A stretch of 64,000 bases of DNA from Bradyrhizobium sp. SK17. Lineage in GTDB: Bacteria; Pseudomonadota; Alphaproteobacteria; Rhizobiales; Xanthobacteraceae. The notes below the pieces were generated by a model. That model was not told the origin of the DNA. It saw only the letters and a program-made list of their open reading frames with translations, and searched no databases. Positions 3,172-21,161 of this stretch are shown in pieces. Within the stretch, counting starts at the first letter, position 1. Each line of letters starts with the position of its first letter. Location: assembly GCF_002831585.1 (NCBI RefSeq), contig NZ_CP025113.1, positions 1,178,001 to 1,242,000 on the forward strand. The letters are read 5' to 3'. Both the position numbers and the translations under genes were made by a program.

Positions 3172-4344
3172 TTAACCCGGGACGACGCGCGGATCGACAT
3201 CCTGGGTGTAGTCGACGCCGTCGATGCCGAAGCCGAACAGGCGCAGGAACTGGCTCTTGTATTCGCCGAGATCGGCCAGCTCGCCGAGCGTCTCGGTGGT
3301 GAGCAGCGGCCAGCGCCGCGACACTTCCGTCTGCACCTCGGGCGACAGCTCCCAGTCGTCGACCCTGATGCGCTGCGCGTCATCGAGCGCGACGTCCTTG
3401 CCGAGGCGGGTACGGAACAGGCGGTCGATCTGCTCGATGCAGCCTTCGTGGAGCCCGAGCTGCTTCATGACCTTGAACAGCACCGTGCCATAGAGCGGCA
3501 CCACCGGAATCGCCGAGCTCGCCTGGGTCACCACGGCCTTCAGCGCCACGACACGGGCGGCGTCCGCGCCGAGCCGTCCGCGGATTGCTTCCGCCTTGCT
3601 GTCGAGATCGACCTTGGCGCGGCCAAGCGTGCCGTTCCAGTAGATCGGCCAGGTCAGCTCGCTGCCGATATAGGTGTAGTTGAGCGTCCGGAAACCCGGC
3701 GCCAGCACACCGGCGTCGGCGAGCTGGTCGATCCAGCGCTTCCAGTCATCGCCACCCATCACAGCGACGGTGGCCGCGGTCTGTTCCTCGTTCGCCGGCT
3801 CGAGCGTGGTCTGGAACACTTCGCCGGTCTCGGTGTCGAGCGTCTTGATCTCAATGGGGGCGCCGAGCGGCTTGATGACCGAGCGATAGGTCTTGCCGGT
3901 GTCGGGATCGGTGCGGACCGGTGCGGCCATGCTGTAGACCAGCATGTCGAGCTGGCCGAACTTTTCGCGCACGCGCTCGATGAAGGTTTTCTTCAGCTCG
4001 TCGGAGAAGGCGTCGCCCTCCAGCGTCAGCGGCGAGCGTCCGATCTTCTCGGCCTCGATCTCGAACGCACGGTTGTTGTACCAGCCGGCGCTGGCGCTTC
4101 TCTTTTCCGAAGGCTCGCGCTCCAGCGACACGCCGATCGTATCGGCGCCGCCGGCAAAGGTCGCGACGATGCGGCTCGCAAGGCCGTAGCCCGTCGAGCA
4201 GCCGAGCACGGCGACGCGCTTGGGACAGTCGGCGACCGGCCCCTGCTTGAGAACGTAAGCGATCTGCTCACGGACATTCGTGGCGCAGCCGACGGGATGT
4301 GCCGTGGTGCAGATGAAGCCTCGCACGCGCGGTTCAATAATCAT
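3172..4344 (-). CDS. fabV: enoyl-[acyl-carrier-protein] reductase FabV
   Basis: 390 residues, close to the usual length of this single-domain SDR-superfamily enzyme. Catalyses the last reduction of the fatty acid elongation cycle with NAD(P)H. Visible are MIIEPRVRGFICTTAHPVGC at the N-terminus, the cofactor loop VLGCSTGYGLASRI, and the FabV active site Tyr-X8-Lys in IYWNGTLGRAK; FabI has Tyr-X6-Lys, so this is not FabI. Third gene of fabA-fabB-fabV, 78 bp after fabB. FabV enzymes of Vibrio and Pseudomonas are known to be refractory to triclosan. In Sinorhizobium the third gene at this locus is fabI, so the choice of isozyme here is notable. Confidence 0.93.
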   Translation of the reverse strand: MIIEPRVRGFICTTAHPVGCATNVREQIAYVLKQGPVADCPKRVAVLGCSTGYGLASRIVATFAGGADTIGVSLEREPSEKRSASAGWYNNRAFEIEAEKIGRSPLTLEGDAFSDELKKTFIERVREKFGQLDMLVYSMAAPVRTDPDTGKTYRSVIKPLGAPIEIKTLDTETGEVFQTTLEPANEEQTAATVAVMGGDDWKRWIDQLADAGVLAPGFRTLNYTYIGSELTWPIYWNGTLGRAKVDLDSKAEAIRGRLGADAARVVALKAVVTQASSAIPVVPLYGTVLFKVMKQLGLHEGCIEQIDRLFRTRLGKDVALDDAQRIRVDDWELSPEVQTEVSRRWPLLTTETLGELADLGEYKSQFLRLFGFGIDGVDYTQDVDPRVVPG

Positions 4345-4422
4345 TCGAACCCCATTCCGGATTGTTGCAATGTCCCCATCCGCTGCCTTCTGACCTGTCC
4401 TCGGCGAGCGAGGGCAGCCAGA

Positions 4423-5646
4423 TCACGCGTCGAGCCGCCTGAACACCAGCGTGGCGTTGGTGCCGCCGAAGCCGAACGAGTTCGACAGCACGGTCGTCAG
4501 CTTGGCGTTGTCGATGCGCTTGCGCACGATCGGCATGTCGGCGAACACGGGATCGAGTTCGGTGATGTGCGCGCTCTCGCAGACGAAGCCGTTGTTCAGC
4601 ATCAACAGCGAATAGATCGCTTCCTGCACGCCGGTGGCGCCGAGCGAATGGCCGGTCAGCGCCTTGGTCGCCGAGATCGGCGGACACTTGTCGCCGGTGC
4701 CGAACACCTTGCGGATCGCCTCGATCTCCGGCGGATCGCCGGCCGGTGTCGAGGTGGCATGCGGGTTGATGTAGTCGACCGGCGTGTTGACGGTCGACAT
4801 CGCCATCCGCATGCAGCGCTCGGCGCCCTCGCCCGACGGCGCCACCATGTCGTAGCCGTCGGAGGTCGCGCCGTAGCCGACGACCTCGCCGTAAATCCGC
4901 GCGCCGCGCGCCTTGGCGTGCTCGAGCTCTTCCAGCACCACGACGCCCGCGCCGCCGGCGATCACGAAACCGTCGCGGCTGACGTCGTAGGGACGCGAGG
5001 CGGTGGCCGGCGTGTCGTTGTATTTCGAGGACATCGCGCCCATGGCGTCGAACAGCACCGACAGCGTCCAGTCGAGCTCTTCGCAGCCGCCGGCGAAGAT
5101 GATGTCCTGCTTGCCGATCTGGATCGTCTCATAGGCGTTGCCGATGCAATGGTTCGACGTCGCGCAGGCCGAGGAGATCGAGTAGTTGACGCCCTTGATC
5201 TTGAACCAGGTCGCGAGCGTCGCCGACGCCGTCGAGGACATGCCCTTCGGCACTGCGAACGGGCCGACGCGCTTCGGGCCCTTGGCGCGCGCGATATCGG
5301 CGGCCTCCACCAGCGTGCGGGTCGACGGCCCGCCGGATCCCATGATGATGCCGGTTCGGATGTTGGAGACCTCGTTCTCCTCGAGGCCGGCGTCGCGGAT
5401 CGCCTGTTCCATCGCAACGTGATTCCACGCCGCACCTTCGGCCAGGAACCGCATCGCGCGGCGATCGATCACCTCGGCGGGGTTGAGCGTCGGCGCACCG
5501 TGCACCTGCGAACGGAAGCCGAGCTCGGCGGCCTTCTCCGCACGCGAAATGCCCGACTTCGCCTCGTAGAGGCTCGCAAGCACTTCCTGGGTGTTGTTAC
5601 CGATGGACGAGACAATGCCCATCCCCGTGATGACAACCCGCCTCAT
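4423..5646 (-). CDS. fabB: beta-ketoacyl-ACP synthase I
   Basis: 407 residues. Condenses malonyl-ACP with acyl-ACP and, with FabA, is the branch point to unsaturated fatty acids. The thiolase-fold Cys-His-His triad is visible: Cys in [12 protein letters not shown], His in [11 protein letters not shown] and His in [11 protein letters not shown], plus the C-terminal [10 protein letters not shown] loop. [19 protein letters not shown] at the start and adjacency to fabA distinguish it from FabF. Lies 43 bp after fabA and should be co-transcribed from the irr/fabA intergenic region. Confidence 0.95.
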
Positions 5647-17338: not shown

Positions 17339-18100
17339 ATGGATCGGCCGGAGCAAACCACCCATTTCGGCTTCAGGGACGTGCCCCTGGGCGAGAAGCA
17401 GACGCTGGTGAACGAAGTGTTTCACAGCGTCGCGTCGCGTTATGACCTGATGAACGATCTGATGTCGGCCGGCCTGCACCGGGCCTGGAAGGACGTCATG
17501 ATCACGACGCTCGACCCGCCGAAGGGCGACCGGCCGTTCGCGCTGCTCGACGTCGCCGGCGGCACCGGCGACATCTCGTTCCGGGCCGCCAAGGCCGCGG
17601 GCACCGGCTTCCATGCCACCGTCTGCGACATCAATGGCGAGATGCTCGCGGTCGGCCGCGAACGCGCCGCCAAGCAGCACCTCGACGACCGCGTGTCGTT
17701 CGTCGAGGGCAATGCGGAGACGCTGGGTTTCGCCGATCGTTCGTTCGACGCCTACACCATCGCTTTCGGCATCCGCAACGTGCCGCAGATCGAGCTCGCG
17801 CTGCGCGAGGCCTATCGGGTGCTCAAGCCGGGCAGCCGCTTCCTGTGCCTGGAATTCTCCACCGTCGACGTGCCCGGCCTCGACAAGATCTACGACCTGT
17901 TTTCCTTCAAGGTGATCCCGCCACTCGGCCGCGCCGTCACCGGTGATGCCGAGTCCTATCAATATCTCGTCGAGTCGATTCGCAAATTCCCGCGGCCGAA
18001 CGCGTTCGCCGAGATGATCAGCGCCGCCGGCTTCGCCCGCGTGAAATGGCAGAGCCTCTCCGGCGGCATCGTGGCGCTGCATTCGGGCTGGCGTTTGTGA
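17339..18100 (+). CDS. ubiE: ubiquinone/menaquinone C-methyltransferase
   Basis: 253 residues from ATG 17339; the GTG three bases earlier is less likely. SAM-dependent class I methyltransferase of ubiquinone biosynthesis. Motif I is [17 protein letters not shown]; the UbiE signatures [18 protein letters not shown] and [20 protein letters not shown] are complete, and the C-terminus [18 protein letters not shown] is typical. The stop overlaps the GTG start of ubiB by 4 bp. Confidence 0.97.
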
Positions 18101-19671
18101 TCTCTGCACTGACCCACATCGCGCGCCTCGCCCGCGCCGGTTTCGTGTTTGCGCGCGAAGGCGTGTTCGGCGTCGTCGATCCGGCGCTGGTGCCGCCGCC
18201 CGGGCAGCTCGCGCTGAAAATGGCGCGGCTGATCGAGCGCCGCTCCGCCAAATCCGGCCCGCGGCTGTCGCGCGCGCTGACGAGGCTCGGGCCGGCCTAT
18301 CTCAAGCTCGGCCAGTTCCTCGCCACCCGCCCCGACGTGGTCGGCGTCGCGATGGCGCGCGATCTCGAAAGCCTGCAAGACCGGCTGCCGCCATTCGCGC
18401 AGGACGAAGCCGAGACCGTCATCGCGCAATCGCTGGAACGGCCGCTGTCGCAGGCTTTCGTGCATCTCGGCCCCGCGGTCGCCGCAGCCTCGATCGCCCA
18501 GGTGCATCGCGCCGAGGTCGAGCGCGACGGCGTGCGGCAGCAGGTTGCGGTCAAGGTGCTCCGGCCCAACGTCGCGGCGCGCTTCCGCCGCGACCTCAGC
18601 GATTTCTTCTTCGTCGCGCACAAGGCCGAGGCGCATTCCGCCGAAGCGCGGCGCCTGCGGCTGATCGAAGTCATCAACACGATGTCGCGCTCGGTCGCGA
18701 TGGAGATGGACCTGCGGCTCGAGGCGGCGGCGCTGTCCGAGATGGCCGAGAACACAAGCGACGATCCGGACTTCCGCGTGCCGACGGTGGATTGGGATCG
18801 CACCGCGCACAGCGTGCTGACGATGGAATGGATCGACGGCATCGCGCTGAACGACCACGCCCGCCTGGCAGCGGCCCAGGTCGACCTGCCCGATCTCGGC
18901 CGCAAGGTGATCCAGAGCTTCCTGCGCCACGCGCTGCGCGACGGCTTCTTCCATGCCGACATGCATCCGGGCAATCTGTTCCTCGACGACGCCGGCCGCC
19001 TCGTCGCGGTGGATTTCGGCATCATGGGACGGCTCGGGCTGAAGGAGCGGCGCTTCCTGGCCGAGATCCTGCTCGGCTTCATCACCCGCGACTATCGCCG
19101 TGTCGCCGAGGTGCATTTCGAGGCCGGCTATGTGCCGGGCCACCATTCGGTGGAGAATTTCGCGCAAGCGATCCGCGCCATCGGCGAACCGATCCACAAT
19201 CGGACCGCCGAGGAAATCTCGATGGCGAAGCTGCTGTCGCTGCTGCTCGAGGTCACCGGCCTGTTCGACATGCAGACGCGGCCCGAACTGATCCTGCTGC
19301 AAAAGACCATGGTGGTGGTCGAGGGCGTGGCGCGCGGCTTCGATCCCAAACTCGACATCTGGAAGATCGCCGATCCCGTGGTGCGCGAATGGATCACGCA
19401 GAATCTCGGCCCGGCCGGGCGCATCCAGGGCGCGCTGTCGGGCGCGGGCGAACTCGGCCGCGTCATCGCCAATCTGCCGTCGATCGCCAGCCGCGCCGTG
19501 ACGGTGCTGGAGCAGCTCGAGACCATGACCCGGGAAGGCCACATGCTGTCGTCGGATTCGATCGACGAAATGGCCCGCGCCGAGGCCAAGAAGGCACGCA
19601 TCCAGACCATCGGCCTCTGGGTCATTGCCGCAGCCCTGATCGGAATCTTCTTCGCCATCCGCGCGCATTGA
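18097..19671 (+). CDS. ubiB: UbiB, atypical protein kinase-like ATPase for ubiquinone biosynthesis
   Basis: 524 residues from a GTG start inside the ubiE stop (GTGA, 18097-18100); an in-frame ATG at 18046 would lie within ubiE. Needed for assembly of the aerobic ubiquinone pathway. UbiB/ABC1 motifs: KxGQ in [14 protein letters not shown], the Ala-rich loop [20 protein letters not shown], and [12 protein letters not shown] with VDFGIMGRL for metal and ATP. Two C-terminal hydrophobic stretches include [17 protein letters not shown], a membrane anchor. Confidence 0.96.
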
Positions 19672-19690
19672 TTGCAATGCATGCATCATG

Positions 19691-19707
19691 TGATAGCATC
19701 GCTATCA
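19691..19707. promoter_or_regulatory. FitA-like operator palindrome in front of coaBC
   Basis: TGATAGC-ATC-GCTATCA: perfect 7-bp arms around a 3-bp spacer, 20 bp after ubiB and 30 bp before the coaBC start. The left half extended by one base, TGATAGCA, equals the half-site I recall for the Neisseria FitA ribbon-helix-helix protein (TGCTATCA and complement), and the right half matches in 7 of 8. CoaBC itself begins with a FitA-type domain. A possible TTGATT (-35, 19668) and TGATAG (-10, 19691) would put the palindrome over the -10 element. A second small palindrome, ATGCATGCAT, is at 19677-19686. Confidence 0.6.
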
Positions 19708-19736: not shown

Positions 19737-21161
19737 ATGGCCAGCCTGACCATCCGCAAACTCGACGACACGCTGAAGGCCTATCTGCGGCTGCGCTCCG
19801 CCAAGAACGGGCGCTCGGTCGAGGAGGAGGTCCGGGTCATCCTTCGCGAGCTCGCCGACGGCGGTACGGAGCCCACCGAGGCGCCGCCCGCCGGTTCCCT
19901 GACGGTTGCAGCCCCCGCCCCACGGGTCGCCAGCGCGGCTGGCGAGCCCCGGGTGACCCTGATCATTGGCGGCGGAATCGCGGCCTACAAGGCGCTGGAC
20001 CTGATCCGGCGGCTCAAGGAACGGCACGTCCGGGTCCGCTGCGTGCTGACCAAGGCGGCCCAGCAATTCGTCACCCCGCTGGCCGCCAGCGCGCTGTCGC
20101 ATGAGCGGGTCTACACCGACCTGTTCGACGCCGAGAGCGAGTTCGACGCCGGCCATATCCGGCTGGCGCGGGACTGCGACCTGATCGTGGTGGCGCCGGC
20201 GACCGCCGACCTGATGGCCAAGATGGCGCAGGGCCATGCCGACGACCTCGCCACCGCGACGCTGCTGGCGGCCAACCGGCCGATCCTGCTGGCGCCGGCG
20301 ATGAACCCGCTGATGTGGAACAACCCCGCCACCCGCCGCAATTTGCTGCAACTCCGCCGCGACGGCGTCCACACCGTCGGCCCCAATGCCGGCGAGATGG
20401 CGGAGGCCGGCGAAGCCGGGGTCGGACGGATGGCCGAGCCTGTCGAGATCGCTGCCGCCGCCGACCGCATGTTGCGGCCGCCGCAGCCGCGCCCGCTCGC
20501 CGGCAAGCGCGTGCTGATCACCGCCGGCCCGACCCATGAGGCGATCGACCCGGTCCGCTACATCGCCAACCGCTCATCCGGCAAGCAGGGCTTTGCGATT
20601 GCCGCCGCGGCGCGCGCGGCCGGCGCCGAGGTCGTGCTGGTGACCGGTCCGGTCGAGCTCGACGACCCGCAGGGTATCGCCGTGATGCGCGTCGAGTCCG
20701 CGCGCGACATGCTGCACCGGGTCGAAGCCGCGCTGCCGGTCGACGTCGCGATCTTCGCGGCTGCGGTCGCCGACTGGCGGGTCGCCACTGAAGGCAGTCA
20801 GAAATTGAAGAAGACCGCGGCCGGCATGCCGCCGCTGCAACTGGTCGAGAACCCCGACATCCTCGCGACAATCTCCAAGCTGAAGGACAAGCGGCCGCCG
20901 CTGGTGATCGGCTTCGCCGCCGAGACCGAGCACCTGATCGAGAACGCCAAGGCCAAGTTCGCGCGCAAGGGCTGCGACTGGATCGTCGCCAACGACGTGT
21001 CGCCGGCGACCGGCGTGATGGGCGGCGACCGCAACACCGTCCACCTGCTCTCGCGCGAGGGCAAGGAGGTCACCGTCGACTCCTGGCCGGTCATGACCAA
21101 GGAAGAAGTCGCGACTGCGCTGGTGTCGCGGATCGCAAGAGAAGTGGGAACCACATCGTGA
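19737..21161 (+). CDS. coaBC: CoaBC with N-terminal FitA-type ribbon-helix-helix domain
   Basis: 474 residues. Residues 1 to about 43 ([20 protein letters not shown], then [16 protein letters not shown]) match FitA/VapB-type antitoxin DNA-binding domains. An Ala/Pro linker (about 44-70) leads to CoaC, the flavin-dependent phosphopantothenoylcysteine decarboxylase ([31 protein letters not shown]), then CoaB, the phosphopantothenate-cysteine ligase ([31 protein letters not shown]). These make 4'-phosphopantetheine for coenzyme A. The Cys of the E. coli ACG loop is replaced: the region reads [12 protein letters not shown] (Ala224). A palindrome at 19691 suggests self-regulation. Overlaps dut by 4 bp. 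Confidence 0.93.

What the first reader, a model, noticed from the sequence alone, without database searches (positions are those of the whole stretch)
19737..19880. Coenzyme A enzyme CoaBC fused to a FitA-type ribbon-helix-helix DNA-binding domain
The first 43 or so residues ([20 protein letters not shown] then [16 protein letters not shown]) align with the N-terminus of FitA/VapB antitoxins (MAS..IR.L....L..RA...GRS.E.E.R.IL) and are joined by an Ala/Pro linker to a full CoaC-CoaB enzyme. E. coli Dfp has no such domain. A biosynthetic enzyme that carries its own DNA-binding head could sense flux or product and control its own gene, or others. No toxin partner is encoded next to it, so this looks like an antitoxin domain recruited for metabolism.
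Basis: partly seen in the sequence, partly recalled or inferred. Interest (0 to 1): 0.8.

Follow-up and report, generated by a model that had tools for sequence, protein, structure and literature searches.

The report
Antitoxin-headed CoA enzyme represses itself
In a probable Bradyrhizobium and many related bacteria, the coenzyme A enzyme CoaBC carries the DNA-binding domain of a toxin-antitoxin antitoxin at its front, and a matching binding-site sequence lies before its own gene, so the enzyme likely represses that gene; some relatives still have separate antitoxin and toxin genes at that same spot, the likely source of the fusion.

Summary
Confirmed and extended. CoaBC (19737-21161) begins with a FitA-type ribbon-helix-helix (RHH) domain (PF22513, 57 bits, cut-off 27). 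A palindrome, TGATAGCATCGCTATCA, ends 29 bp before the ATG, with a weaker copy 22 bp further up; no other place in the 8.3 Mb genome matches TGATAGCNNNGCTATCA with fewer than two mismatches. Such an operator (over 8 bits, within 300 bp) precedes 117 of 118 fused coaBC genes sampled and 0 of 92 headless ones. The matrix learned there also finds it before 13 of 29 stand-alone FitA-domain ORFs sampled across the class (shuffles 0.2%). Second sites, present in 60 of 118, mostly lie 22-23, 31-33 or 42-44 bp away: one helix face. Relatives show candidate intermediates between ubiB and coaBC: fitA-PIN toxin-coaBC, fitA with a toxin remnant, and a fusion that keeps an antitoxin tail. Best reading: an antitoxin that already controlled coaBC within a captured toxin-antitoxin operon lost its toxin and became the DNA-binding head of a self-repressing CoaBC, working like PutA. 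DNA binding, repression and any effect of CoA are untested. New variant of a known kind; the literature searches run found no description.

The parts
19737..21161 (+). coaBC: RHH head + linker + CoaC + CoaB, 474 aa
19740..19853 (+). FitA-like ribbon-helix-helix head, residues 2-39
   Evidence: PF22513, 57 bits against cut-off 27; only match in the genome; AlphaFold2 helices 11-24 and 28-40
19857..19949 (+). Ala/Pro-rich linker, residues 41-71
   Evidence: mean column identity 0.36; residues 44-68 with pLDDT under 50
19950..20453 (+). CoaC (phosphopantothenoylcysteine decarboxylase) domain, residues 72-239
   Evidence: PF02441, 107.4 bits; 6tgv CoaBC matches residues 69-466
20496..21050 (+). 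CoaB (phosphopantothenate-cysteine ligase) domain, residues 254-438
   Evidence: PF04127, 236.7 bits
19691..19707 (.). predicted operator 1, TGATAGCATCGCTATCA, 29 bp before the ATG
   Evidence: 25.4 bits with its own sequence left out of the matrix
19669..19685 (.). predicted operator 2, TGATTGCAATGCATGCA, 22 bp upstream of operator 1, beginning at the ubiB stop codon
   Evidence: 20.6 bits; sequence
18046..19671 (+). ubiB, upstream neighbour
   Evidence: PF03109 ABC1 250.8 bits
21158..21616 (+). dut, downstream neighbour, overlapping the coaBC stop
   Evidence: PF00692 109.1 bits

Best explanation
CoaBC here is a fusion of a FitA-type antitoxin DNA-binding domain to the CoA enzyme, and it is predicted to bind the palindromic operators before its own gene and repress it. 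Paired RHH heads would each sit on one 8-bp box (TGATWGCA or its complement); two boxes 9 bp apart make a 17-bp operator, and two operators about two helix turns apart would be bridged by one CoaBC oligomer, because the solved mycobacterial CoaBC is a dodecamer with many subunit ends. In about a quarter of the fused relatives the operator takes the place of the -35 element, so binding would shut out RNA polymerase. The head probably descends from the antitoxin of a fitAB-type operon that lay between ubiB and coaBC, where antitoxin autoregulation already set coaBC expression; loss of the toxin gene joined antitoxin to enzyme. Shown by sequence: the domain, the operators, their co-occurrence with the head, the same operator at stand-alone FitA ORFs, and the unfused arrangements. 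Inferred: binding, repression, bridging, the path of evolution, and feedback by CoA or a substrate.
For: Head: PF22513 at twice its cut-off, conserved like the enzyme, with A2 and R7 invariant in 42 fused proteins. Operator: above 8 bits within 300 bp in 117 of 118 fused loci, 0 of 92 headless loci, own site left out of the matrix where it had been used. On a tree of the enzyme part, 8 well-supported independent head differences: the operator goes the same way in 7 or 8 of them and never the other way (sign test p 0.008-0.016). Motif identity: the matrix finds sites above 8 bits before 13 of 29 FitA-domain ORFs elsewhere in the class, against 0.2% of shuffled upstreams, and palindromes found blind by pattern in three genomes sit 11-15 bp before a FitA-like ORF followed by a PIN ORF (Pfam run on one of the three). 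Geometry: 60 of 118 fused loci have a second site; spacing 22-23 bp in 38, 31-33 in 7, 42-44 in 8, 63 in 3, other in 4. A TANNNT hexamer stands 22 bp after the start of the proximal operator in 24% of 109 loci, at most 8% at the other offsets. Origin: L305 (Mesorhizobium) ubiB-fitA-PIN-coaBC with coaBC about 20 bp after the toxin stop; L251 fitA-PIN-coaBC with a 29.6-bit operator before fitA; L179 and L189 fitA plus a toxin remnant; L101 a fusion that keeps an antitoxin-like tail. The gap before the head (median 68 bp, 39 loci) equals the gap before fitA in the unfused loci (median about 75 bp, 12 loci).
Against: No binding or expression data. One fused locus, L105, has no site above 1 bit. 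Three (L083, L141, L143) have sites only 151-274 bp upstream, found after a 160-bp scan had missed them. Some Rhizobiaceae operators are direct repeats and score lower. 16 of 29 stand-alone FitA-domain ORFs have no site above 8 bits. The window itself shows no consensus sigma-70 promoter. In the AlphaFold2 monomer no N-terminal strand forms and its confidence is low (residues 1-10, 61). The head of the fused Mesorhizobium proteins is not a near copy of the unfused FitA seen in L305, and the tree of heads (42 columns) does not settle one or many origins (5 changes, 1 forced).
Confidence: 0.82

Rival explanations
1. The operators belong to an unrelated regulator of coaBC, and the head is a passenger that only helps CoaBC to assemble.
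For: RHH domains dimerise, and CoaBC is oligomeric (PMC7794376, passages). Two headless genomes, G077 and G496, carry several TGATTGCATCGCAATCA copies elsewhere, so some other factor may bind a similar word there.
Against: The operator goes with the head across 8 independent differences; the same operator precedes stand-alone FitA-domain ORFs; this genome has no second PF22513 protein that could use it; 0 of 92 headless coaBC loci have it.
Confidence: 0.08
2. The head still works as an antitoxin, holding a PIN toxin encoded elsewhere, and CoaBC is a carrier that ties toxin control to CoA supply.
For: Two fused loci keep a further stand-alone FitA ORF 740-830 bp upstream (L087, L101), so fused and free antitoxins can live together.
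Against: Most heads stop after about 40 residues and go into a variable Ala/Pro linker, so the tail found in stand-alone FitA (78-93 aa) is gone; only L101 clearly keeps it. No PIN gene lies next to coaBC in the window. The presence of PIN toxins elsewhere in the genome was not searched.
Confidence: 0.05
3. The operator is a leftover of the toxin-antitoxin operon and the fused protein no longer binds it.
For: The sites clearly have a toxin-antitoxin origin.
Against: Head residues and operator letters stay conserved in 117 of 118 fused loci from two families, at protein identities down to 55-60%, while the linker drifts; second sites keep helical spacing.
Confidence: 0.05

Closest known systems
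Trifunctional PutA (PMC5293562, passages seen)
   Same: A flavin-containing metabolic enzyme with an N-terminal RHH domain that represses its own gene.
   Different: PutA is a catabolic dimer that leaves DNA for the membrane with proline; here the enzyme is biosynthetic and probably dodecameric, the head belongs to the FitA antitoxin family, and unfused toxin-antitoxin relatives remain at the locus. PutA's own RHH family was not compared.
FitA of FitAB from Neisseria gonorrhoeae (PMC3920265 and PMC6118392, passages seen)
   Same: Same Pfam RHH family; autoregulated operon; inverted-repeat operator with 8-nt halves. The half-site letters TGATAGCA for FitA are recalled, not from a call.
   Different: FitA holds a PIN toxin through its C-terminal tail; the CoaBC head has no tail and no adjacent toxin. 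FitAB binds a 36-bp segment as four heterodimers; the 17-bp unit here has its two boxes only 1 bp apart.
CoaBC of Mycobacterium smegmatis and M. tuberculosis (6tgv; PMC7794376, passages seen)
   Same: Same two-domain enzyme; there a dodecamer whose CoaB activity is inhibited by CoA and acyl-CoAs.
   Different: No RHH head: 6tgv aligns from residue 69 of the query. Known feedback acts on the enzyme, not on the gene.

Membership tests
FitA-like RHH domain (PF22513) | Profile match above the curated cut-off | tested here: met
   57 and 60.4 bits against 27
FitA-like RHH domain (PF22513) | Ribbon-helix-helix fold as a dimer | tested here: inconclusive
   Two helices 11-24 and 28-40 in a monomer model; no strand, low confidence at residues 1-10; no dimer modelled
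FitA-like RHH domain (PF22513) | Operator of FitA type in the promoter of its own gene | tested here: met
   Two sites in the window; 117 of 118 fused loci; same matrix hits 13 of 29 stand-alone FitA-domain ORFs. Occupancy not testable here
Type II antitoxin (FitA/VapB) | Adjacent PIN toxin gene | tested here: not met
   Neighbours are mutM, ubiE, ubiB, dut
Type II antitoxin (FitA/VapB) | C-terminal toxin-binding tail after the RHH domain | tested here: not met
   Window linker is Ala/Pro-rich and shows no tail; a tail is visible in L101 only (by eye)
CoaBC | CoaC flavoprotein and CoaB ligase domains in one chain | tested here: met
   PF02441 and PF04127; 6tgv E 3.1e-72
PutA-type autorepressing enzyme | N-terminal RHH on a metabolic enzyme | tested here: met
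PutA-type autorepressing enzyme | Represses its own gene | not testable with these tools
   Predicted from operators only
PutA-type autorepressing enzyme | Homologous to PutA | tested here: not met
   Enzyme part is Flavoprotein + DFP and no PutA domain is among its Pfam matches; it works like PutA but is not a member

The most novel reading that the evidence does not exclude
CoaBC of Bradyrhizobium, Mesorhizobium, Phyllobacterium, Bartonella and kin is a domesticated toxin-antitoxin repressor: a dodecamer whose RHH pairs bridge tandem operators, read CoA or pathway intermediates through the enzyme itself, and so put CoA synthesis under direct transcriptional feedback. The essential gene was first captured by a fitAB operon and then kept the antitoxin as its own regulator; a second, unrelated Xre-type head on other CoaBC proteins shows that this solution was found more than once.
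Probability: 0.4. Interest if true: 0.9.

Novelty: new variant of a known kind. Interest (0 to 1): 0.78.

Why it matters
Enzymes that repress their own genes are few, PutA being the classic case. This would add one in the CoA pathway, where the known feedback acts on enzymes rather than genes. It also gives a concrete route from selfish toxin-antitoxin operon to housekeeping regulator with unfused and part-fused forms alive in sister genomes, so the steps can be tested one by one. Many fused proteins are simply annotated as CoaBC, and the head is easily passed over.

Tried and rejected
Gene-call or start-site artefact: rejected, because 120 of 120 listed relatives have the head and no in-frame ATG start is common just before the CoaC core of the fused genes (most frequent non-CTG start there is GTG, 22 of 119). 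A regulon beyond coaBC: own-genome pattern scans gave no second strong site; flanking ORFs were read at four weaker own-genome places (L243-L246) and no CoA gene was recognised by eye; L231 was not read. Extra operator matches in other genomes: three lie at FitA-PIN loci; the others read (L232-L236, L240-L242, L247-L249) showed no clear target. Sites about 4 kb upstream in G447 and G567 are not in front of a recognised gene. Single versus many fusions: enzyme tree needs at least 19 changes of head state, 8 on supported branches, the head tree is too short to decide; left open. A promoter in the window: none by consensus. A search for Xre-headed CoaBC in 199 genomes of the Mesorhizobium family found no full-length alignment among the listed rows. 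No dimer or DNA complex was modelled, and no fold search was run. Literature: searches returned 0 papers; one listed 15 papers with 0 occurrences of phosphopantothenoylcysteine; one returned wearables and 84 off-topic papers; two gave nothing on coaBC; PMC2701414 and PMC4803016 have 0 occurrences of pantothen. The library holds open-licence papers only. Counts were made by hand from capped lists.

Full report
WHAT IS THERE. The ORF at 19737-21161 (+) is CoaBC with an extra N-terminal domain. Residues 2-39 match PF22513, FitA-like ribbon-helix-helix, at 57 bits (cut-off 27); CoaC is at 72-239 and CoaB at 254-438. The best solved relatives of the head are the two FitA entries, at a weak E of 0.07-0.08; of the whole protein, mycobacterial CoaBC 6tgv, from residue 69 on. 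AlphaFold2 gives helices at 11-24 and 28-40, a disordered stretch 44-68 and a confident enzyme; residues 1-10 are of low confidence and form no strand in the monomer. Neighbours are mutM, ubiE, ubiB and dut, no PIN gene, and no other PF22513 protein exists in the 8.29 Mb genome. The genus is inferred: two relatives at 85% identity bear names cut at '[Bradyrhizo', and named Bradyrhizobium loci carry the fusion.

HOW COMMON. Counting by hand the rows whose match starts at residue 1 or 2, the head is in 116 of 198 genomes of the window's own family, 11 of 11 of its genus among them, and in 44 of 199 of a second family, or 45 with G711, whose alignment starts at 42 but whose ORF is fused. These are lower bounds, because the lists are capped. 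In a sample of 199 genomes of the order, the nine listed rows with a head belong to these two families; in 190 genomes of the class only the window's own row has it. Among 80 named loci (the best 80 of 550, ranked by likeness to a Mesorhizobium protein), 39 are fused: Mesorhizobium, Phyllobacterium, Brucella haematophila and B. pseudintermedia, Bartonella, Pseudochrobactrum, Zhengella, Rhodopseudomonas and Bradyrhizobium among them.

THE OPERATOR. Upstream of the window's ATG lies TGATAGCATCGCTATCA (19691-19707), a 7-bp inverted repeat around 3 bp. In 213 loci, 119 had fused genes, 92 no head nearby, and 2 (L179, L189) a stand-alone FitA. Built from the sites of fused loci (90 sites scoring at least 11 of 14 against the window's pattern) and with each locus's own site left out, a 17-bp matrix gives 117 of 118 usable fused loci above 8 bits within 300 bp, and 0 of 92 headless loci (highest 3.7). 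Within 160 bp it was 114 of 118; the three extra loci were found on looking further up, and L105 has none. Relatedness was handled on a FastTree of the enzyme part (205 rows): 8 supported independent pairs, operator with head in 7 or 8, never opposite, p 0.008-0.016. The unit is two 8-bp boxes, TGATTGCA-like and its complement, 1 bp apart; some Rhizobiaceae have the two boxes as a direct repeat, TGATTGCAATGATTGCA. Second sites occur in 60 of 118 fused loci at 22-23 bp (38), 31-33 (7), 42-44 (8), 63 (3), 18 (2), 37 (1) and 72 (1): mostly whole helix turns. In the window the second site (19669-19685, 20.6 bits) is 22 bp upstream and starts on the ubiB stop codon. TANNNT is found 22 bp after the start of the proximal operator in 24% of 109 loci and at most 8% at other offsets, as expected if the operator's TTGATT is the -35 hexamer with a 17-bp spacer. 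The window does not show this promoter.

SAME OPERATOR AT FITA GENES. Two checks do not depend on coaBC. A blind pattern scan of 198 genomes matched 99, with 0 matches of the reversed control pattern in every row; three extra matches lie 11-15 bp before a small FitA-like ORF followed by a PIN ORF (L237-L239; Pfam run on L237 only, 28.1 and 60.2 bits). Other extra matches had no evident target, and two headless genomes (G496, G077) hold several copies elsewhere. Second, the coaBC matrix applied to 29 FitA-domain ORFs (open frames up to 176 aa), one per genome, from a class-wide search found sites above 8 bits in 13 and above 1.74 in 17, against 0.2% and 0.7% of shuffled upstreams. Twelve have none above 1.74.

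WHERE THE HEAD CAME FROM. Between ubiB and coaBC several relatives carry an unfused antitoxin: 10 of 18 headless loci of the second family (one a 36-aa fragment), 2 of 20 of the window's family, plus L251, which was fetched because its genome had an operator match, and 1 of 53 loci from other families, with 1.3-1.5 kb searched. Of the 80 named loci 12 have it. L305, Mesorhizobium sp. L2C084A000, has a long ORF (UbiB by eye), then fitA 4001-4261 (PF22513, 62 bits), a PIN gene 4240-4665 (66.7 bits), and coaBC from about 4685. L251 has the same order with a 29.6-bit operator just before fitA. L179 and L189 keep fitA but only short remnants of the toxin. L101 is a fusion whose linker still reads like an antitoxin tail, and a second free FitA stands upstream. 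The stretch from the upstream gene to the first codon is a median 68 bp in 39 fused loci and about 75 bp in the 12 unfused ones (upstream gene taken by length). The simplest history is that loss of the toxin gene joined antitoxin and enzyme. How often this happened is open: the enzyme tree needs 19 changes of state, 8 forced, the head tree 5, 1 forced, and L305's FitA is not a near copy of the head in fused Mesorhizobium proteins.

HOW IT LIKELY WORKS. RHH proteins bind DNA as dimers through an N-terminal strand (general knowledge; for FitA and PutA, passages in PMC3920265 and PMC5293562). Mycobacterial CoaBC is a dodecamer inhibited by CoA thioesters (PMC7794376, passages). Put together: CoaBC heads would pair, two pairs on one operator, and one particle could hold two operators on the same helix face, shutting the promoter when CoaBC is abundant. 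Whether CoA or a substrate changes binding is unknown. This is PutA-like in working, but neither the enzyme nor the head family is PutA's.

A SECOND KIND OF HEAD. Among 120 relatives of the Zhengella protein, 98 carry PF22513 and 4 carry PF01381, an Xre-type helix-turn-helix, in the same place; two of these were re-scanned at 32.7 and 38.0 bits (cut-off 23), and P0139, listed without a head, scores 22.1, just below. An unrelated DNA-binding head in the same position argues for selection on direct gene control, not for a chance fusion.

VERDICT. Papers: only passages and listings were seen, as named above and in Tried and rejected.

Noticed in passing
P0167, P0173, P0191, P0203 (and P0139 just below cut-off): CoaBC proteins with an Xre-type helix-turn-helix (PF01381) head in place of the FitA head: an apparent second, independent DNA-binding head.
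   Followed up: partly
L272-L289, L303-L342 (unfused loci): The gap between ubiB and coaBC looks like a hotspot for antitoxin-PIN operons in Rhizobiaceae; some loci have two FitA ORFs in tandem (L277, L289, L303, L304, L328), and the PIN partner differs between loci.
   Followed up: partly
G496 (14 matches) and G077 (5 matches): Headless genomes with many copies of TGATTGCATCGCAATCA away from coaBC; the factor that would bind them is unknown.
   Followed up: partly
L105: The one fused locus of 118 without any recognisable operator within 1.4 kb.
   Followed up: partly
L207, L197: Fused heads that differ strongly from the rest (long branches in the head tree); possible separate fusions.
   Followed up: no
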